NCBI RefSeq assembly: GCF_921293095.1
Contig: NC_060254.1
Coordinates: forward strand, 106,850,917 to 106,914,916
Source: Ischnura elegans
Taxonomy: Eukaryota; Arthropoda; Insecta; Odonata; Coenagrionidae
Reading direction: 5' to 3'
Length of the DNA stretch: 64,000 nt
The position numbers and the translations under genes were made by a program. Each line of letters begins with the position of its first letter. Position 1 is the first letter of the stretch. Of this stretch, positions 2,877 through 35,064 are shown one piece after another. The notes beneath the pieces are model-generated. The model ran no database searches, was not told where the DNA came from, and worked only from the letters and a program-made list of their open reading frames with translations.

Positions 2877-3205
2877 TGTGCATAATGTAATAATATTATA
2901 ATGGGGTAAGTATGTGCTTCCATTCTTGCTTCTGATTTCAGATCAACATTGCCATATTTTATGTCACCGTAGAGCAATTAAAGCAAATTAAAATTGCAGA
3001 GTATCACAGTGATGTACACATTCTATCTTTCCAATTTTGTGGCTTCCTCCTACGTTCTTTTCGATACAGTGGCCTTGACTACTAAAAGCGCCGAGATATT
3101 TACAGGCACTCAAACATACCCTTTGCCCTTAAGAAAACCCATTCAAGGCCTCCCTCATCTCCGAGTTCCTCCGTCAATGCCAAACAACCGCTCATCTTCC
3201 AGAAT

Positions 3206-6664: not shown

Positions 6665-6699
6665 TATATAAGAGCTTACTTGTTATCACCCATTTAGTC
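6665..6699 (+). promoter_or_regulatory. TATA box and initiator of the NHR gene
   Basis: TATATAAG lies at 6665-6672. About 30 bases downstream is TTAGTC at 6694-6699, close to the arthropod initiator TCAGTY. This puts the start site near 6696 and gives a 5' UTR of about 55 bases before the ATG at 6751. A second TATATAAG at 6492 has no clear initiator at that spacing. Confidence 0.6.
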
Positions 6700-6750
6700 T
6701 TCATCGCTACTACAGCCACTCTATTGGTCTTGATTGCAATTGCCAGGAAA

Positions 6751-9700
6751 ATGACTTTTCTTCGGGCGATAATCGTTGCCACAATCATTTTCGGTATTGC
6801 TGGTGCACGATTTCCAAATTATTACATCCAAGAAGGCAGCGATAGTTTTTCTCACCCCTTCATCGGAAAACAGGATTATAAAGGTTAGATTTTTTCGTTT
6901 TTTACTTTCGGATATTTTCAAAAATATAAGGACTCGGAATAGACTTTATTTTAAATATAAGTTCCGTAACGGCATTCTAACAGTTATACAATGTAAATTC
7001 CTGAAAATGAGCAGAAATCACTTTGGTAATTGCTATAATGCTACTCAAATACCCTTTGGCAATTTAACGTGGAACCTCTTCCCTAGATAATGAAGATATT
7101 ATGTAGGTTTGAGAACTCAGCTTCAAATATGTAAAGTAAATTTCGTTTGAAATTACTTAAAATTGTGCACAGAGATTAACAAATCAAATTAATTACGAAA
7201 TTTTGTACTATTACCAATTCCATCGATTGCCTATGGCAGAATAAAATTATTCCAAATTTTGATTACTTCGATTTTTTATATTCAATCAGCAAACGTCTTT
7301 TCCATCGTTTCCACGTCTTTTCTAACAGTTGAGATATGATTGTTTATCACCTTCAAATTTGATGGGTACCCGCTCAATTTTCATTGAATGTCAAACATTA
7401 ATATCTTTAATGAAATTTATATAATATATCTATAATGAAAATTGCCGGAAAATACTCTTCTGATTGTGATTTGAATCAAGTCATGAAATAGTTCCCAGGT
7501 CCAATTTCATTTCATTTCCAGTGTAAGACCATCATAACCATTTTACACTCTCTTTCCTTCCATTATCTCGTCATTAGCAGTCTTGATGATTTTCTATCTA
7601 TTGCCTTCGGGAAACATTTATTACAGTGTAAGTAACGGCCAATATCGTGCGTGCAAACAAGTTTTTACGCTTAAAAACACGTATATTTCCTAGCGGAGAT
7701 TTCGTTTCACTGAGAAATGAATGTGCCAGGAATGTGCGAGTATCACTTTTTCATCTCGAGTCGAGTTGAAAACATGACCGAGTCGAGTCGAGTATGATGA
7801 ATTCTGGACCAGGCAATACAGCAATGCATACTCCAAAACATTCTCAAATTTCCAATCCCCCAGAGAATATTCTATTCTGAATGCTTAGCATGATTTAAAA
7901 AGAAAAAGGTAATGAGGGATTTTGATGGTAATTGGCAGAATTAGGAGATAAAAGAAATAAATGTGTCTTAAACTGTCCCATAGGCACAATTGAAAGGAAT
8001 TAACCTCTAGTAATGTGTCGACAATTTAAGTCATGATGTATCCTAACTACAGCGGTGGGCCCTGAATAAAGTCTTTTTCACAGCAATAATAAAGATTACA
8101 AAATAAGTAAATGAATCATATAATATTTGTTCCTTTGAAATATTCTTGCAGAAAAACCAATTGTTCTACATGCTTAGGCATCAGGTTTGTCGTCTCCATG
8201 TTACAGCATTACGGCCTGCAGAAAATTATCTTCCCCTACACACTTTTACACACTTAAGCTACACAAGTACCATCCCACCAAAATTACAAGATTTCGGAGC
8301 CTTTGGAATTTTTGTTTAAAACTATATCATCGATTTTTATGGATCTAGAGTCATCATAAAATTGAAGTGGACGAAGCGATCGAACTAAAGAAATCAGCTT
8401 TGTAGAGCCAAAAAAAATGTCACGTATTGTTAAATCAGCCTTTGCAATTCTTGTTTTCTAAGTTAAAGAAAGAAACTAAAAGCAACAAATGAATATTACG
8501 TCGGACGTGCGCAGTGATCAAAAAGGCTAAAAGATAGCACAACTTGTGACGTGACGTTTCAGCGCGACACACCGCGGCGAGACGCGTGGCAAGGGATAAA
8601 GGGTTGCCCTTCGCGGAAATAGTAAATGTTTCCCTCTCTTAAGCATGCCGCCTCAATCCCTTAACCCTACTTCATTACCCGAAGCATATTTCTTATATTT
8701 CTCATGTTATCTAAATAGCTCCATAGAGTAGATCAATAGGGCACAATTATTAAATATCAATTGGCATTTAAACGACCGCAGTCACCAACAAGGAGCTCTC
8801 ACGCTGTATTTAGATTGTGATACCATTGACGGGTATATGTTATGCTGATCTACGCTCCTCACTTCAAAAGAATAGTAAATAATGAAATAAACAGCACTTG
8901 TTACTCCCATTAGAGCTAATCTTGCATATTTGTATACCTTAGCTTCCCATAAACAAATACCAATTCGAAATCGTCGGCGTACTGCCGCCTTCGCACAGAG
9001 AAAATCCGACAGGTTCAGTTTTTCTGCTACGACGCAGCGAGCTGAAGACGTGACGTCATCAATTCTCAAAGAAGGGCTCTGATTGGCTCGCTAGCCGCGG
9101 CGTCAACGCAACGCCGACCTGTGAAGGCACCCTAAGAATGACTTATCGGCTTTAAAAACGATGTTATTACATGAGCTTCCTGATAGCGCTTCCTGTCGGC
9201 AGATTGCAACAGCTCGACAGCTCTGTAGCCGAAAAATTCTACCAACTACTCGACTCGACTCGACTCGGGTTTTCGAGTACTCTCGCATCCCTAGAATATG
9301 CTTTCATTCAAACCTATGGATGGCTTTGATTCGAGAGGGGTCACAAACAAATGTGTGTGCTTCCGCTCTGTTACGTGGCCAAATGCCTCCGTGATTAAAT
9401 AAATCTGTGGAAAAACCCACGATTTCGCTCAGCGAAAGAGTCAGGCGCTAATAGAACTATTCACCACGCATAAATCGAAGCGGCGTCATTTGATTATTAG
9501 GAATGTGTAAAAATCATTCATCATAAATATTCAATTTTTACGATGAAATATGGACACTTTTCAGATGAAAATCACCAGAATGTGGTTGAAGGTGCTACAA
9601 TATTGAAAAGTTTTCCCAAAACTCGGCTGGCATCTAAAGTAGAACACCAACAAAGCGAGCTGGATGAACTGTAAGTAAACACTAAATGAATGGTAAAATT

Positions 9701-12700
9701 CACCTTTTAAACATATATTTAAGGAATTATTTTCTATTTCATATGCAAATAAAATGTATTCTCAAACAGCTAAGAGTCTCAAAACTTAGACACATTTAAA
9801 GAAGATGGAATATTAACGCAAAATCACACGCGTCTGGAAATTCATCACTTATTCACATGTATTAACAGAATTTCGCTTCTATTTCTTTCCCGTATGAATG
9901 TAATTTACATTACTGGTGACGCCTATTTACCTACCTTCACCACGTGGTGTACTGCATTCCAATGAGCAGTTTTCACGAGCATGTTGGCACAAAAACATAC
10001 GCCCAGTAAGACGACCCCTAAGTTCTTGAAACCTTATTGTGTTCACAGCGTAATAAACGTGAAAAATTATGAACCGACTCGGAGAATTGTTGCTTTTGGA
10101 AGAAATTAGAAATAACATATAAATAATTATTTCAATTTTCACTGATCGATTCACGAAGGAGTTGGAATGACCCCGATAAAAAGATATATTTTGAATAATT
10201 GTCGCAATTCAGTGGAAGCACCTAAATAACATTCCTGTACTCTCCGGAAAAATTTTGGGAGGCCCCTGATCGAGCATTTTCAACGCGATTTCCTTCACGG
10301 TAAAGAGGAGAGTCAAACGAAACGCTGACCTAATTAAAAAAATTAGTATTATAAAATATTTTTATGGCCAGCCTAGGAGGTAACAGAGACTGTACTACCT
10401 CACTAAACTTAAGGTCGCGGGTTCCAATCTAACCTGGATGGGTTACAATCAGCCAGGGTCATTGATTAATGCGTTAGCCACGCGAGTCTTTTCTCGCATT
10501 TTAAGTGAAGTTATAATAATTAATAATTCGATTAAATTAATTTGCAGATTAAGCAAGTCAAAGGACGAACCTCTTCACTTCAGCGACATGCGGGGACGAT
10601 TGCTGATTCTAACGGACGACAGACGAAACCTCACCAGAGTCAAGTAAGAACTACTACTTCTTCGTTCCTATTTGCATAATTATATTCTTTCTTCTTAAAA
10701 ATATTTATGGCGAAAGTGATTGCCCCTAGTACGGTGTTACCACTTCTATCGGAGAGGAGAAAATTATCGTCGTAAAATCTTCGCTGTTACATGTAAGTCA
10801 CCTATTAATCACTTGGATAATAATCAAACAATAATTATAATATGGGAGAAATAGAAAGGTTATCATGGACAAAGTTTTTCAATTTTGTTGTTTATGGTGA
10901 ACAAATATAATGATACAATGAATGAATTGTAAATAATATTCAGTAAATCACACGAAAAAAGATGTTAAATTAAAACCGTGGATTACTGGAAATCTCCTGA
11001 GACATATTGAGAGAAAAAATTACCTCTTCAAAAAACACAGAAAGCATCCAAGCAAAGTTAGCCTGAAAAACGAATATCATAAGTACAGAAACGAATTGCG
11101 CGGAAATATTCGTAACGCAGCTAGTAATTACTACATGTCAAAATTTCAAATGGCAAATAGAAACACTAAATTACAATGGAATTTGCTTAAAGAATTAATT
11201 GGTGAAGAGCGAAGAGATCGTTCTATGATGCAGTTAGAATTAAATAGAATTGTTATTAGTGATTCAAAAAATTTAGACTCTGAATTTAATAAATACTTCA
11301 ACAAAATTTTTGAATGTGCAAAAGTAAAATACAATGATGAGAACAGGGCATGTAGTCAAAACCCCTGTGCTAATAAAAGTGAGTTGAATTCCTTTTAAAT
11401 AGAACCAGTGGTGCCAATTGAAATAGAAAAATTAGTTAAAAATCTTTCGTGCAATAAGTCCCCTGGACATGATGGTATAGATGTTAGAATGTTGAAATTA
11501 ATTATTGATGATGTTGCTCCTGTGTTCGCTCACGTCTTTAATTTAAGTTTTATCAATGGCGTATTTCCGAACCCTTTGAAGAAAGCTGTTGTTGTACTAG
11601 TGCATAAAAAAGGGGACAGATAACAAATAACGAATTACCGACCGATATCTCTTTTGTCTGTATTTGCAAAAATTCTAGAGAAACTTGTTAAAAGTCGCCT
11701 TCTGAAATTCCTAGACAAGACCAAATTTTTTAGCAAAAATCAGTTTGGATTCAGGCATGGATTGGGAACTGAAGGTGCTCTAGAGAAGCATATGACCGAA
11801 GTAAACAATTCAGTCAATTCAAGCTCGTGAACTATTGGGTTATATCTAGACATAACCAAGGCATTTGATACACTCTCGCACGAAATACTGCTAATGAAAC
11901 TTGCGCAAGCTGGAATACGAGGGTTATCACTGAAGTGGTTCGAAAGCTATTTGTCGTCTCGAGCACAATGTGTAAAAGTAAATAATTGTTTTAGTGAATA
12001 TGTTACAATTGAGACGGGAGTACCACAGGGCTCTGTCTTAGGACCTATTCTGTTTTTGATTTACGTAAACGATTTATGTGAAAATAAATTCAATGGTGAA
12101 CTCACAGCCTTTGCTGATGATATAGCACTGTGCTACTCAGCTCCCGATTGGAGTTGTGCTGAAGCACTTGTGAAAGAGGATCTATGTTTTTGCGAAAATG
12201 GTTTAATTTCAATAGGTTAGATTTAAGTGAAAAGACGAAGTTTATGTGCTATGACATATGTAATACAAGTATTTTTAATGGTAAACTCATATTTCATTAT
12301 ACAAATTGTTTCAATAGGGTGGTTTCCTATTATTTTTTTATTGCCTAAATCGAAAGATTGTTACTCCTGGAGTACGTATTTCACGCTTTTAGATTTTTAA
12401 ATGACGATATCTATTTTTCGCGATTAAATGAAAAGTGAAAATTTTCAAGCGCGCGAAAACGCGACGCATAAGTATGAATGTCGGGAAGTCTCTCCGCGTG
12501 ACGTATTTCTGGTTCCCCCTCCCGCCCTGCGAGGTGACCTTGAGGCGAGGCTTAGCGCTGATACGACGCAGGCTGCTAGCGGCTAGCCTAGTATCCTGCT
12601 GACTGGTAGCGCTTGGCTTAAATAAGGATTATTAATAACTTATCAAACGAGGAAAACTTTCCGAGCTTAGCCAGTTTTAATAAGTGATTATTAAGACATG

Positions 12701-15700
12701 TTTCCCTGAGCTCTGCGCCTCATGCATGCAATGGTAACCTCAGACGACGTATAACTCCTATCTTCTCGTATAGAAACTAAGTCCCTGTGACGTCACGTGG
12801 AGCGGCATCGCATGGGCGCCAATCTGGCCCTTTTCAAATGAGGATAAAAATGGACCATTGCCATTCGTCTAACCCGGTATTTCTTTAACAAAATAATTTG
12901 TATATTATGAATACACTAATGGTGGGTAAATAATTGCAATCAATGCCTTTCGTTTTCTTTGATGAAGGAAACCACCCTATTGTGTCTGTAACTGTCCGGT
13001 CATTGATAGAGTTAGTGAAATGAAATACTTGGGAGTAATTCTGGATAGTAACCTACGCTGGGATAAACACTTACTTACTGTAAACAAATGCCTTAGAATT
13101 GCCTTGTCCAAATTTTACTACTTACGAAGAAAATGTCCTCTTCCGGTTAAAAAACCATTTATTATGGCCTTGCTCATTCCAAACTTTCTTATGGTGTAAT
13201 CTGTTGAGGCAGTAATACATGAACACATTTAAGTGTGCACTCATTTTGCAAAAAAAATAATTAGGGTAATGCTGTCTAAAAATTGCTAAGACCACTCATT
13301 TCCGTTGTTTGTGGCCCTAAATTTGTTGCCACTTAGGCATTTGTATTTATATAGAGCTTAAATTGTTTTTTGCCAGAAGTGGAAATACGCCTAGTGTAAG
13401 TGACAAATATAAATATAACTTAAGGAATGAGTCATTTATAGTTGCAAAGAGACCTAAGTTAACTGTATATAAACGCTGTTTCATTTACATGGGGCCAAAA
13501 TTATTACATCTACTGCCCGCAAGAATTTAAAAAAATAAAACCACAAATGTCATGTTGAGACTTGCTAAAGACTGGCTCTTCTCACAGGAAAAAGTTGAAA
13601 ATTTATTTTGATGTTATTTACATAAAACTTAATGTATCAGGTACTGCATTATTATGTTGTTGGCATACATTTTTGTTAATTGATGGTGGCTCAATTCTGG
13701 TCCTATGACCTTCGAGAACACCTAAAGCTCCTTCTCTTTTTCCATTGTATTAAGATGTAAAAAAAACAAAGGTAGGAGTAATAAATTATTATTATTATAA
13801 TTGTCAAATGAGAGTTTTGAAACCATTAGAAATGGATGATTTCCAGCAGTTATTGAGCAATTAGAATGGCGTAAGCGAGGGCAGACGGAGAGCGTCACCT
13901 GCGGCGAGTTGGGCGAACTAATTAGAACGGGGCGACCGCACAAATCAGACAGAGGGAGGAGGGTTGTAGGGGTACAGGGGAGGGGAGGGGAAGGAGGGAG
14001 CTCTCTTCTTTCCACCAATGCGAATAAAGATTGTTTACTTTCTAAAGGAAAGAGGTACGAAAAAGAGAGTTTAATTATATTTCTCTCGGATCAATCTATT
14101 CAATTTATTTAATTGACGAAGAAGCCAAAACTGCTAAATTTTAACGGAACATTATTGTTTGCTCGATAAAGTAAGGGATGTGCTGTAACACTGATACTAT
14201 CATTCGATGCAAACAAAAGCTGCCTTACATTGTTCTCACTGTACTTCACCTATCCTGGCCCAACCGGTGTGAGAGCCTTCAAACCTATTACTACCTCCAC
14301 TGTGCAATCGCCCACTGAATCAAATCCGCTCATCTAGTTGCCCAACCATAAGAAACCACTCACCTGGCAGTAGTCGGAGCATATACGCTCACCTCCAAAG
14401 CTTGGAGAATTGGAGGTGAGCGTTTAAGCGCCGCAGATACTGACAGCTGAGCATTTTCCTATTATTGGCCAACTACATGAGCGGATTTGATTCGGTGAGC
14501 GATTAAAAAATATCGCCCACCGAATCAAATCCGCAAATATAGTAAAATTAATCGAAATCCCCTCTTTTAAAGTAGAACTTCTTCACTCGGGTAGAAGGGT
14601 GGGTCGAGGGGGGTGCTCAAACCCTCTTCTTATCCTTCAGGTCACCAATCCAATCAAGGGGACTTCATCGTGAAGCGAACACTCGGCGAAGTTATTCTCT
14701 CTCTCTTCCTTGACTCCTCTCCTCTCTCCACCCGAAACACTATATTCAAAAACTGAAAAAATTCTGCCTGAATTGAAAATAATAGCAACACACTGGAGAC
14801 AGCCAGAAGGCTGGGACTAGTGCAGCACCAAAATCAGAAATAGGGTTGTTTCCTTCATCAAAAAAAAACGAAAGACATTGACTGCGATTCGTTACCTACC
14901 ATTAGTGTATTTATTATATACAAATTATTTGGTTTTAGAATTCCCAGTTTAGACGAACGGCTATAGTCAATTTTAACCTCATTATAAAAAGGCCAGATTG
15001 GCACCCATGCGATGCCACTCCACGTGACGTCACAGGGACCTAGTTTCTATACGAGTAGATAGGAGTTTTACATCGTCTGAGATTACCAATGCATGCATGA
15101 GACACAGAGCTCAGGGAAACGTCTCTTAATAATCACCTATTAAAACTGCCTATGGTCGGAAAGTTTCCTTCGTTTGATAAGGTATTAATAATCCTTATTT
15201 TAGCCAAGCGCTACCTGCTTGCAGGGTAATCTGCTACCTGCTAGCATCCTACGTCGTATCAGCGCTCAAAGCCTCGCCCCGAGGTCACCTCTCTTGCGGC
15301 AGCGGGAACCAGAATGACGTCACGCGGAGTTTTCCTAACATTTATACTTAGCCGTCGCGTTTTCGCGCGCTTGAAATTTTTCGCTTTTCATTTAATCGCG
15401 GAAAATAGATATCGTCATTTAAAAATCTAAAAGCGTGATAAGCGTACACCAGAAATTATAATCTTTCGATTTAGGCAATAAAAAAAATTTTGGAAACCAC
15501 TCTATTCCGGTGAGGCGAGGCGTGACTTCACTCCTGAACCAAAGGTAACCTGATACTCCTGGCTCGTCTAGACGCGTCGAAGGGGGGAGGTGGGTCTGTC
15601 TAGACGGCCGAGTGCTCCCCTTCCCACTTTTTACCGTCGCATTGTTGCGGAGCGCTGAGGGGAGGTCGGAAATTCAAATTGGAAATCCGAATCTCGCCCG

Positions 15701-17994
15701 TTTTGGCCTTGCCGCGTACTCCACAGGGATATCTTTTCTCGCCACGGGCATTCGAATAAAACTATGGGTTTCAATTTCGATTTAAGATCAAAGGTTTTGC
15801 TCAGTCTCGGCAATTTCAAATTTTTGATTTTGCTGCTTAGAGATAAATTATAGTTACCCTAAGTCCATGCAAATATCTTTGATAACTTGAGGACATAAAA
15901 GTATGAATTTCCCCTGTTATAATGAATACATGTCTCCTAAATACGATTGTGAAAACTGCAGACTCTTCTGTTTTACCGCAAGCGAGTGATATGTGAACAC
16001 CGGGATAGAGTAATAACAGACGCCATCGGCCCACAGCGGCTCCAGCAGGTCGATCTGTAAATGTCATATGGCCGTCACAAGCGGATTTCGTCAGTTTACT
16101 ACGATGCTAGGGCGATTCTGAAACTATTTAGTCACGTCGATCTGACTACCTCGTCGGTGCAAGCATTCACGGCCAAGAGGCCCAGCCCTTCGTCGCGGCA
16201 ATGCGCTTAAAATTTTCATTATGAATATACGTTACGATTGTTTATTAATAGCACATTATTCGTTAATTACGATGGAAGCTATTTTAAGCTGTCACTTCCC
16301 AAAAATAAAGTGCATTAAAAATAAATAAAAGAAATGCGTACACTTAAACTTACATTCGCGCACTTTGAATAGGGTAGTTTCCTTCATCAAAGACAACGAA
16401 AGGCATTGATTGCGATTCGTTACCCACCATTAGTGTATTCATAATACACAAATTATTTGGTTTTTGAAATACCGGTTTAGACGAATGGCAAGGGTCAAAT
16501 TTTATCCTCATTTGAAAAAGGCCAGATTGGCGCCCATGCGATTCCACTCCACGTGACGTCACAGGGACCTAGTTTCTACACGAGAGGATAGGAGTTATAC
16601 ATCGTCTGAGGTTACCAATGCATGCATGAGGCACAGAGCTCAGGGAAACATGTCTTAATAATCACCTACTAAAACTGGCTAAGGTCGGAAAGTTTTCTTC
16701 GTTTGATAAGGTATTAATAAACCTTTTTTAAGCCAAGCGCTACCTTTCAGCAAGGTACTCAGCTACCCGCTGGCAGCCTGCGACGTATCAGCGCTAAGCC
16801 TCGCCTCAAGGTCACCTCACCGGGCGGGAGGGGGAACCAGAAATACGACGTACGGAGATATTTCCCGGCATTCATACTTGAGCGTCGCGTTTTCGCGCGC
16901 TTGAAAATTTTCACTTTTCATTTAATCGCGAAAAATAGATATCGTCATTTAAAAATCTAAAAGCGTGAAATACATACTCCAGGAGTAATAATCTTTCGAT
17001 TAAGGCAATAAGAAAATAATAGGAAACCACCCTATTGATGATATATGTGCCAATTGTATCTTCGCCTTGATTGCGATAGAAGTTGGTGAGAAATAATTCT
17101 TTTGCGAGCCGGTGAAAGCGTAGTCGCGGCAGTCAATCTTGGTTTTTAACGATGAATTTCAATCATCAATGCGAGGTTGTAGACTTCATGAATGTATTAT
17201 AATCAATGACAGTCGCAAAAGAAAATGTATTGCACTTCACAGTTAAGTACGATAACTTGCTACCTTATTCAAGTGCTAATACACAGAGGCATATGTTTTA
17301 GGAAATGCACATCAATCTAGGAGACTTTCCGTGAGTTACGTCAGTAATGAAGATGAAACCTTTATTTTCGAAAGAGGACACTTGGGTAGTGATACGGTTT
17401 AAGGGTTTTGTCCAAATATGCCCGAGTTCGAGAGAAAAAAAAGCATTTAAAAAATTAGAAATACGGACACGTCGAATTTAGTTTTTAAAAATCCACTCTT
17501 ACATTCAATGTCGATTTATCCTAGTGGTAGCGTTTCGCTTTCTGTAGGATTCGAGTTGGTGACTCGGAGATTGCAAATTTTTTCCAGTCTGCCAGTCTGT
17601 ACATTTTTTGTAATCTGTTCCATTTTCACAAAGGGTGAAGGCCGGTATCCACTAGTGATGGGTCGATCATGAACGATTCGATCAAAAAGATTGAATCACT
17701 AGGTGAATCAAATGACTCATGATTCATTTCGTTAAACAAGTCGATCATCAATCACTCCGACTTCCGGTTTCATATCAATCATCCCGGTTTCCGGTTCATT
17801 TCAAAATTTGGAACGATCGATGCTTGATCTATTTTCGACAGGGAAGAAATAGTTGAGAGAAAATTAAATATTATGTTATAAAGAACTGAATGCTTTTGTG
17901 ATCTTTTTCTTATATGATTTCCAGCAGTTATCAGTATTAATAACACAAATACACGTAAAAGGAAAGTATTAAGATGACTCTTGTAGGAGAACGT

Positions 17995-18032
<38 letters not shown>

Positions 18033-21000
18033 TAAAGCTGTTAACATTTTATTATGCCGTTTATAAAATCATCCTGCAGATCAGATTCATGCATAGTGTG
18101 TGGTGTATTTTGTGTTACATTTTTAGATATATAGTTAGAAATTATTCTATTAGTGTTAAGAAACTGTGACAGTTTTGCCTTCCCAAATATTTTCATGACA
18201 CTACTTCCTTCATTTTTGCAATATACTTTACTCATCTGGGAATTCACAATCAAAATAGTATATGAAATGTTAATATGGATAGCAATCAGCGTTACCAATG
18301 CTCTTCGAAGATGAGGCAGTATTTATTCGATTCTTCAAAGTGATTTATTACATCCATTGATAGAGTCTTTTCGATCTTGATTCCTTTTGAGTCTTTTCGA
18401 TCATAACGATTGAATCAATTGTTTGAATCATCTCTGTGACTCGAGTCAAAATGATTGAATCACTAAAATGATCGACTTTGCCCATCACTAGTGTCCACAG
18501 TGCGAGGCTGTTCGCTGCGAATGTCTCGTGGCGAATGCTCGTCTTTGCCTCGGACTGTGGATACCGACGTTGCTCGCTATGAGGCGTTCGCGTCGCACAA
18601 TTCGTGAATGCGGGTGGTTGGCGTGCTCGTAGTGAGCATTCGTGGTTACAAAATCGCTGAAGAGCGTATGTCTCACCCTGAGGCAGAATTCGCGAGGCAT
18701 TCGCAGCGAGCAGCCTCGCACTGTGGATACCGACCTTAAGCCCGTATGACACTATCCAATTTATTGGCCAATAAATCGGCGCACAATATAGTTTAAAATA
18801 TTGGGAGTTACGTACCGTATGACACGTATCAATATTTTCACCAATATTGGCCTAAAAGGTGTTCTAATGTCCCGCTTGAGAACGACATTGTATTTCGATT
18901 AATTTACGCTGTGTTCGTGTGATTTGTACTTTTCAATCAATAGTGAAACCACATTTTAGAAAATTCAAGCGAATTTTCGTAACAAAACCAATTTTTTACA
19001 TCCAAATCGTATGTTTTTTGAATAGCTTCTTGTAGTGGCCACTTGGTGTCAACAAACTGACTTCTGATTGGAGATTGGCCGCGATAAGATAGAACCTGTT
19101 CTAAATTCCAAATTGGGCGAGAAATTGTGTCCAATACTGTGGAAAGGAAATTGGACTAGAAATTGGTGCGTGTCAGTTGGACCACAATCCAAAATCCGAT
19201 GGATTGGCCAATGAATTGAAAAGTGTCATACGTGCTTTGAGAAAAAAGACTTTGCTGTTCCACAAAATAAAATAAATATTTGCGACCGGTTTCGATACGG
19301 CGTATCATCGCCTGGCCAACTGATGATACGCCATATCGAAACCGGTCGCAAATATATATTTTATTTTGTGGAACAGCAAAGTCTTTTTCTCTTACCCTTT
19401 GTGCATCATGAAGGAGTTCCATCATGTTACGCCACCCAACATCGCATGTTCCATGTTCGTCAGGCTTATTGATCGCAGAAGTTTTACATTTTTTACTTGA
19501 CGGCTTTTTGACAATAAGCCCTAAATTAATATATATGTCGCAATAGCGACATGAGGTAATAGGGGTGTTAACCTCAAATGAAAATACCCATTTAAGTAGA
19601 TGCTAACGGTGAGTTTTGGCTAATCATTCACATTGGTGAAAAATTTTTTGCAATAGGTGCATTACATTTTCTTTTGTGCTCAGATGAAATTTGTGCGCCT
19701 TTGAAACGGCCTGTTTCGGCGGGAAGTCAGTCTCAAATGGCTCTGACGTCACCCACAGCTACTTCGCTGGCTGTGCGCTTTCGGTGAACGCTGTTACCCG
19801 AGCCGTGCTTGAATTTGCGGATGCCGTGGTGAGAAACGGCTTTTTGTGTTATTAACCGTAAAAAAATGTCTTTAGGTCCAAGTCTGTTGCGTAAACTTGG
19901 CCCGTTCACGGAGCAGGTTAACACAACGCCTGACCGACACTTGACTGATGCTCAAAATCGTCAATAAAAGCCCCTATGAAGCAGCATGCGTATCAAATAA
20001 CTTTTCCTTAATTCCTAGCTGCGCTCTTGAAGCGAAGGAAGAAATACAACGGATGGTTTACCGACTCGTTAACATACCACGTTTAATTGATTATGAGAAA
20101 ATCATGGGTTTTCATTAGCACATGAGCACAAACATCACAAAAACTGAAGGACTGACCATACGATTTGTTAATCGTTATCACGAATGCAACACGGACATTA
20201 CCGTTTGCCAACAATTGCTTGGAGATTTGTTTACAAACACGGTAGTGAAGAGTCAGCCAGAGCTGGGCTTACAATTAGCTCGAAATAATTTTTTTTAAAT
20301 AAAATGTCAATATTTTGAATATAATTAGTAATTAAAATGTTATATTGCTACAAATTTCAGTTATTAGATAGGTAAAAACAAAACAAATAATTTAATTTGT
20401 AGTTTTGACCGACTTATCAATTGTTGTTGCGTTAATAACTTTTAAAAACATATCACTAAGAAAGAGATTAATTTTTTGTGTGAAATTATCCGTTATTTTA
20501 TGCCCTATGTGTTATCCGGGGCTGAGACGAATCCATGGAACCTAATATCATTAAAATTGGTGGAGCCGTTCTCGAGTTATAAGTGTTCTAACTAAAACGA
20601 TTTTCGACTTTCTTTTATTTATATAGAAGAGTTTTCATCTCAGCATCGCACTTTATGTGTAAAAAGCAAAATAAATAATGTTTCCGATGGAGATCAAATT
20701 ACGGTCCTTTGTTGAAACTTGCGGTGCAGAGGATTCAGATTGCTTGAAAAAGCATCGATTTAAAAATATGTTAACTCAATTAAATTTAAAGAGAATGTAT
20801 GCTTTGAAATGACGAAGTACTCATATCAAATATGAAAATCACATTCAGCGCATGCTGGGAGAACGCTCGATCAAATTAGATGAGCACACTTTGGAATGAA
20901 ATTTAGTTGTCCAGGTGTAGTTGCCACGTCGAATTAAATGCATAAGTAAGTGAAAAGCCGTTTTTCTCCACTCTTTCCACACAGTCCATTTGGAGGGCGC

Positions 21001-24000
21001 TTCATCAATGCGCTTGCATTTACGTCAAGACCACTTCAGGACGATGAGCTCCTCGAGATCACGATCTTGGAAATGAATGTCGAAGCTGGAGAAGATTACT
21101 ACTTGGCAATTGGAGTGACGACCGAAAATCCTGAAAAAATCAAAGAAGTACCACAGATGATTCTGGGCCTTAAGTAAGTACGACGAAACCTGAGGTGATA
21201 TCCGGTGCAGTCAAATCGATGACTCGGTAAAAATAGCTGAATAGTGAGTGATGTATGGCCGTTTTCCAATTCGCAATTATTCACCCTTCGTGCACTTTTC
21301 GACCGTCAACTTAAGGATGTGACGACAGCAAAGGTAGATCCAATCGACGAGGGCACGAAGGAACGAGGGAACGAAGGGTAAGCGAACAAGGGAACGCGGA
21401 TGCTCCCTCGATAGCGTGCCCGCGTAGGAAGTGGACGTGAAAATGGCGGCAATGGAAAAATTAGAAATCTTGAACTGGAGTTTTAAGTAATTTTGTGTTT
21501 ATTATGTGAGCTCTTTTACGTAATATTATATCGGCATTTGCTCTTCACGTGCAAAAATATAAGTATAAAGGTGAAACTGATTCTTAAATCAACCACCAGA
21601 TGTCCTAACACTTCCCCGCGCGTCACATTTCGTTACTGTCAACAGTTACTGTCAGAAAAAAATATAAAAAAAACGGATTACATATTGTTTGGAACCTTTG
21701 AAAAAAATCATGAACGGCAACAAATTAACAATAACATGATGTTTTCTTGGTATAATATATTAGGGGAGACCGGGGAACGTTGGCCCGATTTTTTTACATT
21801 TTTAAATATTTTTTATTTATGCATAGTTAACTTTATGAAATTATTGCTAAATTGTAGAACAGTCTTTCTAAATCTGGATGGCAATAATTAAACTTGAATA
21901 TATGTGTTATAAATTTAAAATAAATAAATAAATAATGGGCATATGACAGGTGGGCCAATCTGCCCCTACATCGGGGTAAGTTGGCCATGCGGCTGGGGCA
22001 CGTTGGCCCATGTATTTTTTGATAAGCTGAACTAGTATGATTTTAGGGAATCAAAATAAAACTAATAGTTATCAAGAAATATATTTCAATACATGCAATC
22101 ATTTTGCTAAAACAACGGGAAAGCTTTAAATTATTAGGATTTCTCGCGTGCTAATACCAACCAGTTAACTTTTGTGACTGTCCAGATACAAAGGATCAGC
22201 GCAGTTATTGCTTTTGTGAAATAGTACACGGATTTCATTGTTCACACATGTCTAATGAGCGCAACGCTTGCAATTTGTGCACTAAATGCATTGTGCTGCA
22301 GGCTGACCGTCGAAAAATGCACACTTTAGGCATAGTGAATCTTCATTTTCCTATATCGGACGCGCGTATTTTATTTTATTTTTTGGCTCTAGTTGACGTG
22401 CGTTACATTGTAATACTATGTCACGTTCAAATAGAAGTCTGTCTTCACCACTGCGCTTATATTTTAGTAGCCTCTGTGAATTTAATTGAGTCTTTGTGTC
22501 TAATCAGTTCAGACACAACACAACGCTCCCAAAGACGACTAATCGCAGACCCAGTGGAACCTCTGGAGTTGACTATTGATGCAAGCTTACTCTAAAATGT
22601 AACGGAAAATAATCCATGTAAGTGAGGAAGGGGTAATCCAGCTTTTGAGCTCAATTTAAATTGTAATTGAATTCTTCCTATAAAGAGGCAATCAAATGCG
22701 CAAGTCCACTCGACTTGTTTTTCACTTTTCTCGAATGAACTGCTTAAGCACATTTGCATAAACAGTGACATATATGCTAACCAGAAAAATGTAAATCTAG
22801 CTTTGGAGAAGGAGGAACGTATGACATGATAAAATCAGGTAATATGACATATAATGCTAATGTCATACGCACAATAAACGTATGTGTTGGTCCAAAAATG
22901 TAACAAAACTTAACAAAAGATACTTCCCCACACTCTTGTCGGCAAGCATGCATTGTAACCTGTTTGAAATAATATTAAGTCATTTACACCTGAATGTCAG
23001 CTCATTTGAAGATGGAAGCGACCGTCTATTCAAAATTAGGCCATTTTTGACGAAGGAATGCATGGCCAACGTGCCCCGTCATCGCTGGGCCAACCTGCCC
23101 CATCGCCATGTTTACAATAAATTCTATTCGTTACAAAACTCACGGAAGCAATTTAGATTGTATGCCACACACAAGTTATCCTTAAAATATGATATTTAAT
23201 TATAGTACTCAACTATTGGGCACAAATAGATCTAATCTTAAATAACACACATTTAACCTGTTAGTAGAATTTTACTGAAACACGCACAAATACAATTAAT
23301 CGCTACAACTTGTCAAAAACTGCTCCGCCAGTCATAATGGTGTTGTGGAGAAAGGGAAAGTGTGTTACCAACCTTCTGATAGATTCCTAGCACGATTCAG
23401 TGTCTATTGTATGAATTAGCTCGACTGGGCCATCCTGCCCCTATGGCCAAGTGCCCCGGTCTCCCCTACCCTAGCGAGATGTTTATTTAAAGTTAATACA
23501 TTATTATGTGCACACAATGTATGAAAAAATAATATTTAAGCAAGGTCAAATAATGCATTCATTCTGACTTTTCTTGGCAAAGAAGCAGATGATACGGTAT
23601 GTCACCGGAATAGTATAAGTATAGATTAAAGTGATGAATATTAAGTGTAAATAGCTAATGAGAGGTGCTTATTTCAGAGCCCCAGGGTGGTTTCTCTACG
23701 GTGTGCAGGGGTTCCAGTGTAACGGAAAATGCCAGATTATTGACGGCGTTAAGCTTCCAAGGAATGGCCAGGTGAGTGTCAATAATGGGACGAAGTGTCA
23801 TTGAGCTTTGAAGTGGATATGAGCTTTGAAGTGGATAGTGGAGTTTTCCTCATTGGGATAGTGCATGTTATTGGATAAAAGTTTGGCCACAGCATACGAT
23901 ATCGATCGGGAATAAAAATGAATTTAAGGGTAAAAACAATGCGGAAAATTCATATCGTGTGCTTCAAGTTAGCACTTTTATAGCTATTAGAACAGACCAT

Positions 24001-27000
24001 TAAGCCTTTTTCATACAAATAGAGTGATTTTACTTCAATTACTGCATTCATTCGCTAATTACTGAAAAATTATAACGGTAATAACCCTATTGATATTTAT
24101 TTTTACCATAATTATACATGATTAAGGAATGTTATGCTGGATTTTATCGTAAATGATAAATGATTTGACGCAGTCATAAATACTTTTTCCTTGCAAATAC
24201 TTGCTTAATGACGTGCACCAAAATTGGCATTTTCAGCTGCAATTTCCAGAAAATTTAGAAAGAGTTTTCAAGGCTTGTATTGAAGTTTTCTAGCAAATTG
24301 TATATAGTTATTTTCTCTAGCCAATCTCTGCAATTATCTGCAGCGGTTCCAAAATTTCCTAATACCCAACACGGCTAAGTCCGCCATTCTGGTCAACGCC
24401 AAAATTCCGTGATTCTACGTTAAAAGAAGTTTTATCCAAAAATTCAAGCGGTTAAGTTTTCAAAATAAACATAAGAAAGTATTTAAGAGCTAATAATATA
24501 TGAGCTTAATAGGTTAATGTGAACTTTTTTAATTTTGGTAAATCGTAGTTTACTACGACAAAGAAAAAAAATTCGGCAATTCAAATATGTATTTAAGCGT
24601 AATTAATTTGATGGCAAGACCTAAAAAAAGAATTTTTCATACAAATTAAATTGGCAAAATTGCCGGAGAAATAATTACATTTAAGTCTATCACAATGATA
24701 TGTTCTTTTCAATAACACAGGCCAACAATGAAAAAACCTTTTTACTGAAAATACCTTATTAACCGTATTTACAAGATTTGACACCCAGTGACTTTTTATC
24801 ATTTCTCAACTTGAATAAATAGCTTTGCAGACAAATTTTCTTGTCTATGAAGTAGATAATTGCCCAAATTAATGAATAATGAGAATATCCCGAAATTATT
24901 CTTTTTGAACGGCTAAAAATCCTTGGAAAAATGTATTTAAAATTTACAGAGCAGAAACGAGTTGAAGTTGAAAAATAGGAAAAACTTGATCCAAAAAAAT
25001 TATTTTTATATCTTTTTGTAAAGACTTATTGAATGACCTTCGTATCAAGTAATTGCCGATTTCTGATTTTTCTCTTTAAAATGCGCTCGATGAGGTTGAA
25101 TTTTTTTTATCATCGTGAGTGATTTTATACGCTCGATTGGAAGGCATAGTTTCTGGTGCTATCATGCAAACACAGCTCGAATGCATTGCATAAGTTGGTG
25201 CGGCTGCTCTCAAGACGACTGAATACATTCTAAGTTAACTCATATAAATCCTATTGTGGGACTTTGCAAGGTCGAGTACAGTGTGACGATGACTCTTCAT
25301 CATTTTATGCATTTAAATGACACTTAGCGTGCTTTTGTCTTCCCGGTTTGCATTGCGAACTCTTACGTGAGATAATAATATTCATCTATGTCTCGCTTCA
25401 TAAGAAATCAATTTAAATTAGGCCGTTATGACTCTGTTTAGCGAGGGGCCGATGAAAGCCGTTATTTTGGCTGGAGGACTGTTCTTTAATAACACAGGCA
25501 AACAATGAAAAAACCTTTTTACCGAAAATACCTTATTCTTATGTTTTTAAAGTTGCTGAATCCGAATGTGATGGTTTTAAAGTTGTTTCACCCACCATTT
25601 ATTCACATTTTACAGTTAAATTTATGAAATCAAGCAATATTTTTAGAATTTAACAGCTTTTTTATAGTTATAATAAAATTGAAAAAGTAGGCCTAATGAA
25701 CGAAGATAATGGGGGATTACTGTTGGTGTTTCACCGAGAAGTTCAGCAAGCGATTCATCGCAGAAAAATCTACACAAGAAGCTTCAAGGAAAAAAGGGAA
25801 AGAAAATGTAGACTAATTCCAGTTGACAAGTGTACCCTATATTATCACGCTGTAGTAAATAGAAACAATTTTATCACGATGTATTGAATAGTAAGTGCAA
25901 ACAATTTTATGATGTAACACAGTTTTTCATTGATTTTCCTGTATACCGTAAGGGGTATTAGACTAAATATTAAACTACATATTGCTTGGAAACTAAGGGT
26001 GATACAAAAAAACTAAGGTCAGGTTTGGATTCGGCACATTAAAATTTATAAAGATCAGCTATTAAAATAAAAACGCTTTCAAACAAAACTTTAATAGGGT
26101 GGTTTCCTATTATTTTTTATTGCCTAAATCGAAAGATTATTACTCCTGGAGTACGTATTTAACGCATTTAGAATTGTAAATGACGATATCTATTTTTCGC
26201 GATTAAATGAAAAGTGAAAATTTTCAAGCGCGCGAAAACGCGACGGGTAAGTATGAATGCCGGGAAATCTCTTCGTGATTCTTATTTCTGGTTCCCGCTG
26301 CCCCCCTGTGAGGTGACCTTGAGGCGAGGCTTAGCGCTGATACGACGCAGGCTGCTAGCGGGTAGCTGAGCACCCTGCTAGCAGGGAGCGCTTGGCTTAA
26401 ATAAGGATTATTAATACCTTATCAAACGAAGAAAACTTTCCGAACTTAGGTAATTTGAATGGGTGATTATTAAGAGATGTTTCCCTGAGCTATCTGCCTC
26501 ATGCATGCATTGGTAATCTCAGACGATGTAAAACTTCTATCTACTCATATAGAAAATATGTCCCGGTGACGTCCCAGTGTGGAGTGGCATCGCATGGGTG
26601 CCAATCTGGCCTTTTTCAAATGCAGTTAAAATTGACCATTGCCATTCGTCTAAACTGGGATTTCTAAAGCTAAATGTGATGAGTTGCATGCTGCAACCGT
26701 TCAGTTTTCCTGATTTATGACGTAAAACGTACCGTTTACGAACACCTAACTACTATGATTGTGAATGACCAAATGACTACTACAATCGCAAAAGAAGAAA
26801 CCGCATTCTAAGAAAATGTAAATAACTCGGTGATATGTAGCTCAATACGACAATTTACTACATGTTGCTCCTTTGAATAATTTTGTGGTTCGGGAATTCG
26901 GGAATCATTCCTTATATGGGTCAAACGTACATAAAGCAATAAATACAGTTGAACTTTCATTCATTCCTCAATTTAAATGCAGTTCTCCGTAAAATATTTA

Positions 27001-27237
27001 AAAAACGCCCGATTAGCTTTGACCACTTGTGATATTTCGCATGGAAGTATTATATTTAACCTTCATTTCTTTATTCCGCAGGTTAATGACACTTTGGGAG
27101 TGAGAATGACTTCTGGAACCATCAGATTCTTTTTCAATCAAGATTTGATTGGTTTGGTCGACACAGAATTTTACGGAGAAGTGTACGGCGTGGTGGATTT
27201 AGAATACAATGTTGATAAGATCGCAATAACATCTTAA
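6751..27237 (+). CDS. Secreted Neuralized-homology-repeat (NHR) protein, six exons
   Basis: Coding exons are 6751-6883, 9565-9670, 10548-10643, 20985-21173, 23678-23771 and 27082-27237. They give 257 residues plus stop, with GT-AG borders and intron phases 1, 2, 2, 2, 0 that all agree. Residues 1-19 are a hydrophobic signal peptide with a likely cut after G-I-A-G-A. Residues 20-87 are a polar linker. Residues 89-255 form one NHR: L-H-F and L-L-I-L-T-D-D (89-104), F-I-N-A-L-A-F-T-S-R-P-L (118-129), G-W-F-L-Y-G-V (178-184), T-L-G-V...I-R-F-F-F-N-Q (210-226) and V-Y-G-V-V-D-L (240-246). The only two cysteines are C189 and C193, which could bond if it is secreted. NHRs are best known from cytosolic Neuralized-type proteins carrying RING or SOCS modules. 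Neither is present here. Function and partners are unknown. Introns 1, 3, 4 and 5 carry transposons. The start is favoured by the TATA box and signal peptide. Confidence 0.85.
7727..9293. mobile_element. hAT-like element in NHR intron 1
   Basis: The ends are imperfect inverted repeats: CAGGAATGTGCGAG at the left, and TAGGGATGCGAGAG read inward from the right. Both are followed by runs of CGAGT/GAGTC. They are flanked by an 8-bp duplication, gaatgtgc at 7719-7726 and gaatatgc at 9294-9301, with one mismatch. The 8-bp duplication suits the hAT superfamily. No transposase frame was recognised in the 1,567 bases, so it is a non-autonomous or decayed copy. It contains CG-rich patches at about 8550-8620 and 9040-9120. 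Confidence 0.65.
10365..10480 (+). repeat. Possible tRNA-derived SINE fragment
   Basis: An A-box-like TGGCCAGCCTAGGAGG at 10365-10380 is followed about 40 bases later by a B-box-like GGTTCCAATC at 10420-10429. This is the order and rough spacing of a tRNA-derived Pol III promoter. There is no clear tRNA fold and the body ends indistinctly. It lies in intron 2, shortly before exon 3. Confidence 0.35.
10955..13802 (+). mobile_element. 5'-truncated LINE (CR1/Jockey-like reverse transcriptase) split by a MITE
   Basis: The translation gives a pre-RT linker (K-P-W-I-T-G-N-L-L-R), then K-S-P-G-H-D-G-I-D, N-Y-R-P-I-S-L-L, N-Q-F-G-F-R-H-G, L-D-I-T-K-A-F-D, G-V-P-Q-G-S-V-L-G-P and the catalytic F-A-D-D. 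After the interruption comes M-K-Y-L-G-V-I-L-D-S-N-L-R-W. These are non-LTR RT motifs in the usual order. Frame breaks: stop codons near 11396 and 11622, another near 11828, and further decay after about 13020. The endonuclease region is absent. The 3' end is a short (ATT)n tail near 13785-13800. A 661-bp MITE at 12317-12977 splits the frame after residues F-N. The clade assignment is tentative. It lies in NHR intron 3. Confidence 0.85.
12317..12977 (+). mobile_element. GGGTGGTTTCC MITE, copy 1 (inside LINE)
   Basis: It begins GGGTGGTTTCCT and ends AGGAAACCACCC, flanked by TA at 12315-12316 and 12978-12979. Removing it and one TA restores the LINE frame across the site. It is 661 bases with no coding capacity. 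The TA duplication suggests the Tc1/mariner superfamily, but no parent transposase is in the window. TGACGTCACGTG lies at 12788-12799. Confidence 0.9.
14306..14534. repeat. Nested palindrome repeat
   Basis: Arms at 14306-14340 and 14470-14504 are near-perfect inverted copies (about 35 bp, core GAATCAAATCCGCTCAT). A third partial arm in direct orientation lies at 14512-14534. Inside is a second perfect inverted pair of 14 bases, 14385-14398 and 14410-14423 (ACGCTCACCTCCAA). The structure suggests a foldback element or a MITE built from TIRs. The family is unknown. Confidence 0.6.
14843..15502 (-). mobile_element. GGGTGGTTTCC MITE, copy 2
   Basis: It is inverted relative to copy 1, 660 bases, with TA at 14841-14842 and 15503-15504. 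The ends are slightly eroded (GGGTTGTTTCC and GGAAACCACTC). CACGTGACGTCA lies at 15021-15032. Confidence 0.88.
16372..17032 (-). mobile_element. GGGTGGTTTCC MITE, copy 3
   Basis: It is in the same orientation as copy 2, 870 bases further on, and 661 bases long. TA flanks lie at 16370-16371 and 17033-17034. CACGTGACGTCA lies at 16550-16561. The DNA between copies 2 and 3 holds nothing recognisable. Confidence 0.9.
17636..18739. mobile_element. Short TIR/foldback element interrupted by a hAT MITE
   Basis: The left end (AAGGCCGGTATCCAC, then after the insertion AGTGCGAGGC) and the right end (AAGGTCGGTATCCACAGTGC read inward) are long imperfect inverted repeats. An extra internal copy of GTGGATACCG lies near 18560. 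Without the inserted element it is about 260 bases and CG-rich. The right end abuts TTAA (TGAA on the left), a possible but unproven target site. Confidence 0.6.
17653..18490. mobile_element. hAT-like MITE nested in the TIR element
   Basis: It starts TAGTGATGGG-TCGATCAT and ends with the inverse of TAGTGATGGGCAAAGTCG. The flanking 8-bp duplications are gtatccac at 17645-17652 and gtgtccac at 18491-18498. The end sequence and 8-bp duplication are typical of hAT. It is 838 bases with no transposase, and holds a (GAA)n tract at about 17998-18031. Confidence 0.8.
18740..19235. mobile_element. TIR element with CCCGTATGACAC ends
   Basis: GCCCGTATGACACTATCCAA at the left and GCACGTATGACACTTTTCAA read inward from the right form inverted repeats that continue through ATTGGCCAAT-like sequence. 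The length is 496 bases and no transposase was seen. Several internal CGTATGACAC and ATTGGCC copies occur. It abuts the elements on both sides. The target duplication is unclear. Confidence 0.65.
19241..19389. repeat. Imperfect foldback 1
   Basis: Arms of about 65 bases pair almost fully. The right half contains CTGATGATACGCC...ATCGAAACCGGTCGC. It is one of four short foldbacks in the window with a CTGA...GAAAC core. Confidence 0.75.
20500..20628 (+). repeat. Dispersed repeat fragment (diverged)
   Basis: A shorter, diverged relative of the sequence at 2694-2876: TATCCGGGGCTGAG, then AAAATTGGTGGAGCCGTTC, GAGTTAT and a CTTTCTTTTATTTATATAG end, in the same order. It lies in NHR intron 3. Confidence 0.4.
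21762..23467. mobile_element. GGGGAGACC-ended element with piggyBac-like remnant, NHR intron 4
   Basis: The ends GGGGAGACCGGGGAACGTTGG and, read inward from the right, GGGGAGACCGGGGCACTTGG are inverted repeats flanked by TA. Copies of GGGGCACGTTGGCCC-like sequence recur inside near 21970, 22005, 23070 and 23095. The element is about 1.7 kb. A frame at 22882-23199 encodes M-H-C-N-L-F-E-I-I-L-S-H-L-H-L-N and D-R-L-F-K-I-R-P-F-L, which resemble the DDE_Tnp_1_7 (piggyBac) transposase. The frame is only a piece and runs on into the terminal repeats. Whether the remnant belongs to the element or was captured is unclear, since piggyBac uses TTAA targets and these are not TTAA. Confidence 0.7.
24702..24760 (+). 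repeat. Direct repeat, left copy
   Basis: 59 bases nearly identical to 25481-25537, in the same orientation and about 780 bases apart, in NHR intron 5. Both include AATAACACAGG and AAAAAACCTTTTTAC. The nature is unknown. Confidence 0.6.
25481..25537 (+). repeat. Direct repeat, right copy
   Basis: Partner of 24702-24760, differing by a 2-base gap and two substitutions. Confidence 0.6.
26097..26669 (+). mobile_element. GGGTGGTTTCC MITE, copy 4 (3' truncated)
   Basis: It has an intact left end after TA at 26095-26096. It matches the family through the segment ending near 26669, then breaks off without the right TIR. The CRE/E-box site is degenerate. It lies in NHR intron 5. Confidence 0.85.
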
Positions 27238-30200
27238 GAATGCATTGCACCAAACAACGCCGAACATTTCATTATATTGTAGACTTCAATTGTGTGTGAG
27301 GTGGAAAATAAACTGGCATGCTTGCACGGGTATTTCAAAGTGACTGGCTCGAAAAAGTCTTCATTTTAGTTGCCAGAAATATGTGAATAAAAGCATTTCT
27401 ACCCAAAAAATAATAAATCAGCACCTTTTTTCCATAAAAGAAACGCATAATCCTCAAAATAAAATATTTAAGTGTTGCATGATAGCGCTAGCTAGATAGA
27501 AGTTAACATTTCGCTTTCAATAATATCTACATATTACTAGACGACCTGGTGAACTTCAATTCACCTTCATATAATTCTATCAGCGGAAAGTTTTGAACAA
27601 ATCCTTGTTCTGATGAAGAAACGTTTGTGGTTCTTGGACAATATTTCGCTTCACTGTTCGATTGTGAGCACAACGCCAGCCAACTTACGCATCTGGATTG
27701 CCCATCTCACATTATTTTAGTTTTGTTTATTTTTTTCTTGTACGAATAAAAATTTGAATTTTATTAGGTACTTATAACGAAACTCACCTTTCACTTCTTA
27801 TTTTGTGTTACCATGGGGTACAGAAATACACTTAGTTAAGAAATAACATGCACCAAAATCACTTTGTACAAATTATATTGAAAATGTCGTAAAGAAGACT
27901 AATTGGGCCCAATTTACTATCTATTATTATACAAATATGTTGCGTAATTTCCCTTTCTGTTCCAATGTGCACAATAAAAAATTGTCTATACATACAACTG
28001 AACTCCCCCACGGAAATCTTTGGTAAAAGGCGAAAGTTTTATACGAACTGACTTGAGTTCTGCCGTATCTCTTCCTCCGCGATCTTTCTCTCTCGGAGGC
28101 GCCTCCTTTTTCTATGCGTCCTTTTCATCTTTCTGCCAATCTTTTTAGAATACGTCTCTCTTTAAGCTCTCTCAATACACAACTATGTTAGCTTTCCTCC
28201 CGATCTTTTTAGAACACGTTTATCTCCTAGTTCTCTCCATACACAACTATGTTAGCTTTTCTTTCCGCGTCCCTCACTACCATTATTGCCTCCTCACTAC
28301 GATTGTTAATTTTAATTTATTTATTTAAACAAACAACATGGCAGTTTGTTTACATACAATTATGGTATAATGCCTTGTAAGTAGGCATAAAATTGTCCTG
28401 CATAATATGCATTGCACCCAACGAAGTCATTTGAAAACAACTGTTATCGTTTTGAGTGTTTGCCGAGAAATGTTTAGAATCATTTACCATACCAGAAACT
28501 AATGAGCATCATGGATCAGGTGGTGGCATCAATTGTGGCAATTTTACTTTTCCACCAGCAAAACGTAATCCAGTACATTCACCGTTGTACTTTTACGCAT
28601 TATAATATTGAAAAATTACTTTCATTACCTCAATTTCTACTTATTTTCCGTCTTTAATAATGTACTTCCGGATTGATTAGTTGAACGCTACTCGTTCCAG
28701 GATCAAAGGAGCATTGCGTCTTCCGAATCGCTAATTTCATCGTGTTGTGCTAGCTCTTGTTGTGTTTGTTGTGCACGGACTCGTTGCATTCGAAGCCACT
28801 TCTTTTTCAGTCACCCTAGAACGCAATTCTGCAATAACAATACGACAATTGTCATTGCCCTAGTAGCACCAAAACTAGATTTAATACGTATCATACATCA
28901 CCACTATATACATATTATATCGGTATAAAATACATGCAAATGTCCTCTACCACGAAGATAATATCTAGATATTATAAGTATTATATCTGCTGCCATTATA
29001 TGGATTTTATATTGATGAAATACGTATAACTCGTCATAAATTTGTATATTATACATATCTTATACATTTCTGATGATCCCTGGTTACGCCGCAAGGATAT
29101 TATCTGTATATTTGAAAGATTCTGGTATGCATCAAGGACCATGGATCATCAGACATGTATAAAATAATATAATATATAGATTTGCAAAACTGCATAATGA
29201 TGTATTTCGATATCTTAAAAATATACAGATATAATCCTTTCGGTACTACATGGGTGTATGTCTCTCGCTGATCATCAGCACGGTAAGCACGTAAGTTTGC
29301 TCGCCGTACATTTCATTGAATTCGAATACCGAAGTTGGGTTGTATTCTCTTTGGCATGGTAAGTAACTAAATAAAAGAAAGTTCTGTTAAATAGTATTGC
29401 TATGTTAAAGTACATAAACAAATGACAGTCTTAACATAAACAATAAACGGTTAGTAACGAAATTAGCCAAAGGTAAGTGAAGAAAGTTTTCGCGCACTAA
29501 ATTTATGAATAAATAATGGACAAATGCATTTTTTAACGACTATAACAATGGATTTAATTTGTCAATTAACTTAGAGATGTCAAACTACATTAACAATACT
29601 GACGGTCGTCAAGGGGACAGTAAGAAAAAAAAACGCTCACATTTCAGTATTTTTATGATTATTTTTTTCAAAATTCACCATAAATCACGAGGAAAACGAA
29701 TACTGTTTTCAAGAATAAGAATATGTATTTATTTTTATTTCCAATGGTATATGTTTTAACGATATGTGACCGTTATCACTAATTAAAATGTGTATAAGAA
29801 AGAAGGCCTGCAAGCATCAATAACGAATTTTACATGTATTTCTCATGGAAATGAGTCAGGGCCCATACCAGAGCCTCATGGGCCCTGCGGAATAATAATT
29901 TCACCGTTTAAACTCTCTGAACTTTCATGAATAATTTAAAACCACAATTAGCCAAATTGGTCCAGTCGGTCTCTATTTCTAGCGAGACTAACGCTCAGCA
30001 ATTCATTTTTATTATACACAAGACTAGCTGTCCCGGCACACTTCGTGCCGCCTAATAATTACTAGGAACACTTTAGTAACACCATTTTTTCATCAAGAGC
30101 GGATGTAACCCAAAAAATCAAATATCATTAAAATCGGTGAAGGAGTTCTTGAGTTATTAATGGTGTAACTAACACGTTTTTGGACTTTCTTTTATATACA

Positions 30201-35021: not shown

Positions 35022-35064
35022 CATTCTAGGGATTGCGACCTGGGGGAATAGCAATCACCACCGA

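What the first reader, a model, noticed from the sequence alone, without database searches (positions are those of the whole stretch)
6751..27237. A secreted, stand-alone Neuralized-repeat protein
Seen: a TATA/Inr promoter, a clear signal peptide, and six exons whose phases agree and encode one NHR and nothing else. Known: NHRs are best known from cytosolic Neuralized, NEURL and Ozz proteins with RING or SOCS partners. Inferred: this NHR acts in the secretory pathway or outside the cell, perhaps as a glycan- or protein-binding beta-sandwich, with C189 and C193 possibly bonded. I do not recognise a described family with this build.
Basis: partly seen in the sequence, partly recalled or inferred. 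Interest (0 to 1): 0.75.

Follow-up and report, generated by a model that had tools for sequence, protein, structure and literature searches.

The report
Secreted single-domain Neuralized-repeat protein gene
This stretch of what looks like an animal genome holds an intact-looking six-exon gene for a small protein that is probably exported from the cell and carries one copy of a binding domain best known from proteins that work inside cells; what it binds is unknown.

Summary
Six exons (6751-6883, 9565-9670, 10548-10643, 20985-21173, 23678-23771, 27082-27237) with GT-AG borders and agreeing phases encode 257 residues. Residues 91-256 match the Neuralized profile PF07177 (positions 1-148 of 149, E 1.3e-14); exon 4 alone is found in a raw frame (E 1.9e-6). 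Exon 1 starts with a typical signal peptide, and there is no second hydrophobic stretch. No RING or SOCS profile matched in the three + frames of 1-31652; the stop follows the domain by one residue.

New: the gene lies in a roughly 27-kb tandem duplication. The last exon of a second copy is at 182-337, with one silent change in 156 bases.

Weakest link: nothing tests that exon 1 joins the NHR exons. A start at 9543 without signal peptide, or a direct splice to 10478, stays possible. Best reading: a soluble secreted NHR binding protein without an E3 partner; ligand unknown; SPRYSEC proteins are the nearest precedent. Ten paper searches (listings seen) showed no secreted stand-alone NHR protein; no animal proteome could be searched.

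The parts
6665..6700 (+). TATA box (6665-6672) and Inr-like TTAGTC with A at 6696
   Evidence: such pairs are at chance level in the window as a whole
6751..6883 (+). exon 1: ATG, signal peptide MTFLRAIIVATIIFGIAGA, start of mature protein
   Evidence: (1 of 266 ATG stretches passes a rule written afterwards)
9565..9670 (+). exon 2: linker (residues 45-80, end codons shared)
   Evidence: best-scoring of 9 phase-compatible candidates, not unique
10548..10643 (+). exon 3: end of linker and start of the NHR domain
   Evidence: lets the NHR profile match from position 1 instead of 24
20985..21173 (+). exon 4: NHR core
   Evidence: PF07177 E 1.9e-6 in a raw frame; best-scoring candidate internal exon
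23678..23771 (+). exon 5: NHR, holds C189 and C193 (CNGKC)
   Evidence: acceptor scores poorly
27082..27237 (+). exon 6: end of NHR, stop TAA
27307..27463 (+). polyadenylation-signal-like hexamers (27307, 27386, 27412, 27458)
   Evidence: pattern only
182..337 (+). last exon of a second, tandem copy of the gene (its other exons would lie left of the window)
   Evidence: 155 of 156 bases equal, the one change silent (AAC/AAT)
1..3209 (.). 3' part of the upstream copy of the tandem duplication; matches 26891-30547
   Evidence: 90.2% over 1520 and 91.8% over 1801 aligned columns
26891..30547 (.). 3' part of the downstream copy of the tandem duplication

Best explanation
A tandemly duplicated gene, probably of an arthropod (not proven), makes a 257-residue precursor. 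The first 19 residues send it into the endoplasmic reticulum and are cut off after AGA (inferred). The remaining 238 residues (27.0 kDa, pI 4.9) are a linker of about 70 residues followed by one complete NHR domain (shown by profile). With no second hydrophobic segment it is soluble and leaves the cell (inferred). C189 and C193 lie either side of NGK, probably a hairpin turn, and may form a local disulfide; N107 and N208 are possible glycosylation sites (inferred). Without a RING, SOCS box or second NHR it has no known means to direct ubiquitination; it most likely works as a free binding domain for an extracellular protein or glycan, the way secreted SPRY proteins of cyst nematodes use a related fold (inferred).
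For: Gene model and phases; PF07177 over profile positions 1-148 of 149, E 1.3e-14, the only family at E up to 1; nearest solved chain is KIAA1787, 2e63, E 3.1e-6 over mature residues 75-231 (that KIAA1787 is NEURL4 is recalled). Signal-peptide rule met by 1 of 266; 19-residue stretches with mean hydropathy above 1.2 start only at residues 1-8. No RING/SOCS profile in the three + frames of 1-31652. Exon 1 leaves one base and exon 3 as modelled needs two, and exon 2 fits both. Second copy with identical protein in exon 6: 1 change against 6.5 expected at the rate of the 3' flank (Poisson P 0.011), or 6.1 with the intron tail added (P 0.016). PMC4054857 (passages): SPRY proteins of nematodes are typically not secreted, but a minimum of 37 secreted ones lie in one expansion in Globodera pallida. 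PMC8195603 (passages) names the Neuralized repeat among SPRY-like domains with the concanavalin lectin fold; PMC2923778 (passages) says that SPRY and NHR structures are similar.
Against: No transcript, no ortholog and no structure model. Exons 1 and 2 carry no profile match; their link to exons 3-6 rests on splice signals and phase. Acceptors of exons 2, 3 and 5 are not outstanding by my rough score (ranks 134, 174 and 415 of 1067). The exon 6 conservation is modest: a stretch of the non-coding 3' flank is as alike (561-720: 1 mismatch in 160), so gene conversion could explain it. The TATA/Inr pair is at chance level. No close relative was found in viral or prokaryote collections, which hold no animal genomes.
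Confidence: 0.68

Rival explanations
1. The NHR protein is cytosolic: transcription starts near exon 2 and translation at the in-frame ATG at 9543 (MKYGHFSDENHQ...), so there is no signal peptide; exon 1 belongs to another transcript.
For: The frame of exon 2 is open upstream past that ATG to 9501 (sequence).
Against: No TATA+Inr pair there (the + strand pairs are at 6665 and 52878), though such pairs are weak evidence; exon 1 fits exon 2 in phase, and exon 1 has the only start of 266 that passes the signal-peptide rule.
Confidence: 0.15
2. Signal peptide and NHR are joined, but with another N-terminal linker: exon 1 splices straight to an acceptor before 10478 (exon 10478-10643), or both forms exist. 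The product is still secreted.
For:: that exon is open and phase-compatible with exon 1, score 3.6 against 3.8 for exon 2.
Against: Exon 2 has the better acceptor (0.5 against -0.4); the difference is small and the score is home-made.
Confidence: 0.1
3. It is an alternative or partial transcript of an ordinary E3 component (Neuralized, NEURL2/Ozz or NEURL4 type).
For: NHR is known from such proteins (PMC9098882, passages).
Against: Stop one residue after the matched domain and the same stop in both tandem copies; no RING, SOCS or further NHR profile in the three + frames of 1-31652. Very short exons would be missed, and the minus strand of the gene region was not scanned.
Confidence: 0.04
4. 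The gene is a decaying duplicate.
For: It lies in a duplication, with repeats and a broken reverse transcriptase in its introns.
Against: All six exons open with GT-AG borders, full-length domain, exon 6 with one silent change only.
Confidence: 0.03

Closest known systems
NHR of human KIAA1787 (NEURL4 by recall; PDB 2e63)
   Same: NHR domain; nearest solved sequence, E 3.1e-6
   Different: NEURL4 has several NHRs and is not secreted (recalled); here one NHR behind a signal peptide
Neuralized / NEURL1 E3 ligases (NHR1-NHR2-RING, recalled)
   Same: NHR domain
   Different: no RING and no second NHR found
Ozz / NEURL2 (two NHRs plus SOCS box; PMC9098882, passages)
   Same: NHR as the binding part of a protein of similar size (285 residues there)
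   Different: one NHR, no SOCS profile, signal peptide
SPRYSEC proteins of cyst nematodes (PMC4054857, passages)
   Same: works alike (inferred): a SPRY-like beta-sandwich, usually not secreted, used as a secreted binding protein and amplified in copies
   Different: SPRY, not NHR; effectors of plant parasitism; no common origin implied

Membership tests
PF07177 Neuralized (NHR) | match to the domain profile above the curated cut-off | tested here: met
   54.8 bits against cut-off 23.3, profile 1-148 of 149
Neuralized-type E3 ligase | C-terminal RING | tested here: not met
   no RING profile at E up to 1 (up to 10) in the three + frames of 1-31652; stop one residue after the domain
Ozz/NEURL2 | SOCS box after the NHRs | tested here: not met
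   same calls; no SOCS profile
NEURL4/Bluestreak | several NHRs in one protein (recalled) | tested here: not met
   one NHR stretch; the other copy's exon 6 has its own stop
Secreted proteins | cleavable signal peptide, no further membrane segment | tested here: met
   by hydropathy and a home-made rule written after seeing the sequence; SignalP not available; depends on exon 1 being joined
Secreted proteins | product found outside the cell | not testable with these tools
   needs expression
SPRYSEC | SPRY domain | tested here: not met
   only PF07177 matches at E up to 1

The most novel reading that the evidence does not exclude
An undescribed family of secreted, stand-alone NHR proteins, amplified by tandem duplication, in which an intracellular substrate-recognition domain has become a disulfide-braced extracellular binding protein (lectin-like, immune, digestive or reproductive).
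Probability: 0.4. Interest if true: 0.65.

Novelty: new variant of a known kind. Interest (0 to 1): 0.5.

Why it matters
NHR domains are studied as cytosolic substrate readers of ubiquitin ligases. A secreted one would show the fold working outside the cell and give a small single-domain protein on which NHR ligand binding can be measured. Annotation by name would call such genes neuralized-like ligases, so a family of this kind could be hidden in arthropod data sets (inference).

Tried and rejected
Own-genome search for PF07177: no genome is held for this window. Close relatives in viral contigs and genome contigs: none; 16 and 88 pattern matches, none confirmed; these are viral and prokaryote collections, so this says little.

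Ten paper searches. I saw listings; two gave 0 papers (7, 32); one search listed 20 of 1,842 papers and none of the 20 holds a neuralized term, so it was useless. No listing reports a secreted stand-alone NHR protein. PF07177 is named in one paper: one midgut transcript of the desert locust, lower at 2 h than at 24 h after feeding (PMC10484617, passages, section 3.3 read); whether it has a signal peptide is not stated in what I read. [quoted passage not shown] Mentions in PMC10829477 and PMC10521528 (passages) are by name only; PMC9334734 (passage) only labels an NHR domain in a figure legend.

The first home-made scan for internal exons with tight thresholds gave 7 candidates: exon 4, and exon 3's donor with other acceptors, but not exon 2 or 5 (exon 6, being terminal, was not sought). 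Exons 2, 3 and 5 were then placed by reading the sequence. A first version of exon 2 was one base too long and broke the frame (which also ended in an error); corrected. The sigma-70 promoter scan is of no use here. Ten open frames of the 29 of 95 residues or more listed gave no Pfam match at E up to 0.1. No tRNA was found.

Full report
Observation. I rebuilt the gene from the sequence. Exons 6751-6883, 9565-9670, 10548-10643, 20985-21173, 23678-23771 and 27082-27237 have GT-AG borders, phases 1, 2, 2, 2, 0 that agree, and encode 257 residues ending in TAA.

The NHR. An untouched + frame of 6751-21750 gave one Pfam family, Neuralized, E 1.9e-6, at exon 4; the other two frames of that stretch gave only a reverse transcriptase. 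Joining exons 4-6 gave E 4.1e-13 over profile positions 24-148; the full protein gave E 1.3e-14 over residues 91-256 and profile positions 1-148 of 149. So exons 3 to 6 together make one complete NHR in order. Among solved structures the NHR of KIAA1787 (2e63) is the only credible match: E 3.1e-6, next best E 0.21.

The signal peptide and the promoter. Exon 1 begins MTFLRAIIVATIIFGIAGA-RF: a charged start, a hydrophobic core and an AGA site. Of 266 ATG-started stretches with 40 open codons on both strands, only this one meets a simple signal-peptide rule, which I wrote after seeing it (the rule stops at residue 18, I take 19 by eye). The protein has no second hydrophobic segment. A TATA box at 6665 and an Inr-like site with its A at 6696 stand 31 bases apart, the A 55 bases before the ATG. 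But the window has 3 such pairs where 20 single-base shuffles give a mean of 3.25, so they add little by themselves.

Is exon 1 part of this gene? This is the weakest link. Exon 1 leaves one base and exon 3 as modelled needs two, so an exon between them is required unless exon 3 starts earlier. Of 9 open, phase-compatible candidates (2 of them longer forms of exon 3), exon 2 scores best (3.8), followed by a direct splice to 10478 (3.6), which would keep the signal peptide with another linker. A cytosolic product starting at the ATG at 9543 in the exon 2 frame cannot be excluded without transcripts.

No E3 partner. The three + frames of 1-31652 hold no RING, SOCS or further NHR profile, and the stop comes one residue after the matched domain. 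The minus strand and 31653-64000 were not scanned in full; 10 of the 29 open frames listed were, without a match.

A second copy. Positions 1-3209 match 26891-30547 at 90 to 92%. The match includes the last exon of another copy of the gene at 182-337, with one silent difference in 156 bases, and U5 snRNA matches on the minus strand at 1056-1167 and 27956-28067. The gene is thus part of a tandem duplication of about 27 kb whose left copy runs out of the window. At the rate of the 3' flank (30 of 718) exon 6 should show 6.5 changes; one is seen (P 0.011, or 0.016 with the intron tail added). Part of the non-coding flank is equally alike, so this supports selection only modestly; gene conversion is the alternative, and an assembly artefact is not excluded.

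Mechanism. Shown: one full NHR, a signal-peptide-like start in a phase-compatible first exon, no second hydrophobic segment, no E3 profile in the + frames around it. Inferred: export, removal of 19 residues, a C189-C193 bond across a hairpin turn (in the 2e63 alignment CNGKC lies on DGRS with one gap; that this is a turn is inferred), glycosylation at N107 or N208, and binding of an extracellular ligand. A precedent for such a change of place is SPRYSEC: SPRY proteins of nematodes are typically not secreted, but Globodera pallida has a minimum of 37 secreted ones, all within one expansion (PMC4054857, passages). NHR is counted among the SPRY-like domains with the concanavalin lectin fold (PMC8195603, passages).

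Novelty. The domain is known; the build (signal peptide, linker, one NHR) was not seen in the listings of ten paper searches. No animal protein database was available, so uncharacterised orthologs may well exist in public proteomes.

Noticed in passing
1-3209 and 26891-30547: Tandem duplication of about 27 kb that carries the NHR gene and a U5-like snRNA; BLAST identity of the two stretches 90-92%.
   Followed up: partly
1056-1167 (-) and 27956-28067 (-): Two U5 snRNA matches (64.7 and 52.9 bits), one in each duplicate; they differ at 10 of 111 compared positions, so at least one may be a variant or pseudogene.
   Followed up: partly
12310-12983, 14836-15507, 16365-17038, 26090-26675, 34353-35027, 42362-43126, 45143-45721, 49122-49784: A repeat family of about 670 bases in both orientations, about 84-92% alike in the rows printed (40 of 50 self-match rows); three copies lie in intron 3 and one in intron 5.
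   Followed up: no
10937-12217 (+): Broken non-LTR retrotransposon in intron 3, with a reverse transcriptase match (PF00078, E 2.2e-27).
   Followed up: no
21761-23468: Intron 4 holds a stretch of about 1.7 kb with inverted ends (18 bases, 94% complementary) and inner inverted repeats at 21986-22010 / 23086-23110, perhaps a mobile element.
   Followed up: partly
53756-54124 (+): Open frame whose end resembles (from recall) the start of a chitin-binding type 2 domain of a conserved arthropod protein; no Pfam match for this piece and no partner exon found by motif.
   Followed up: partly
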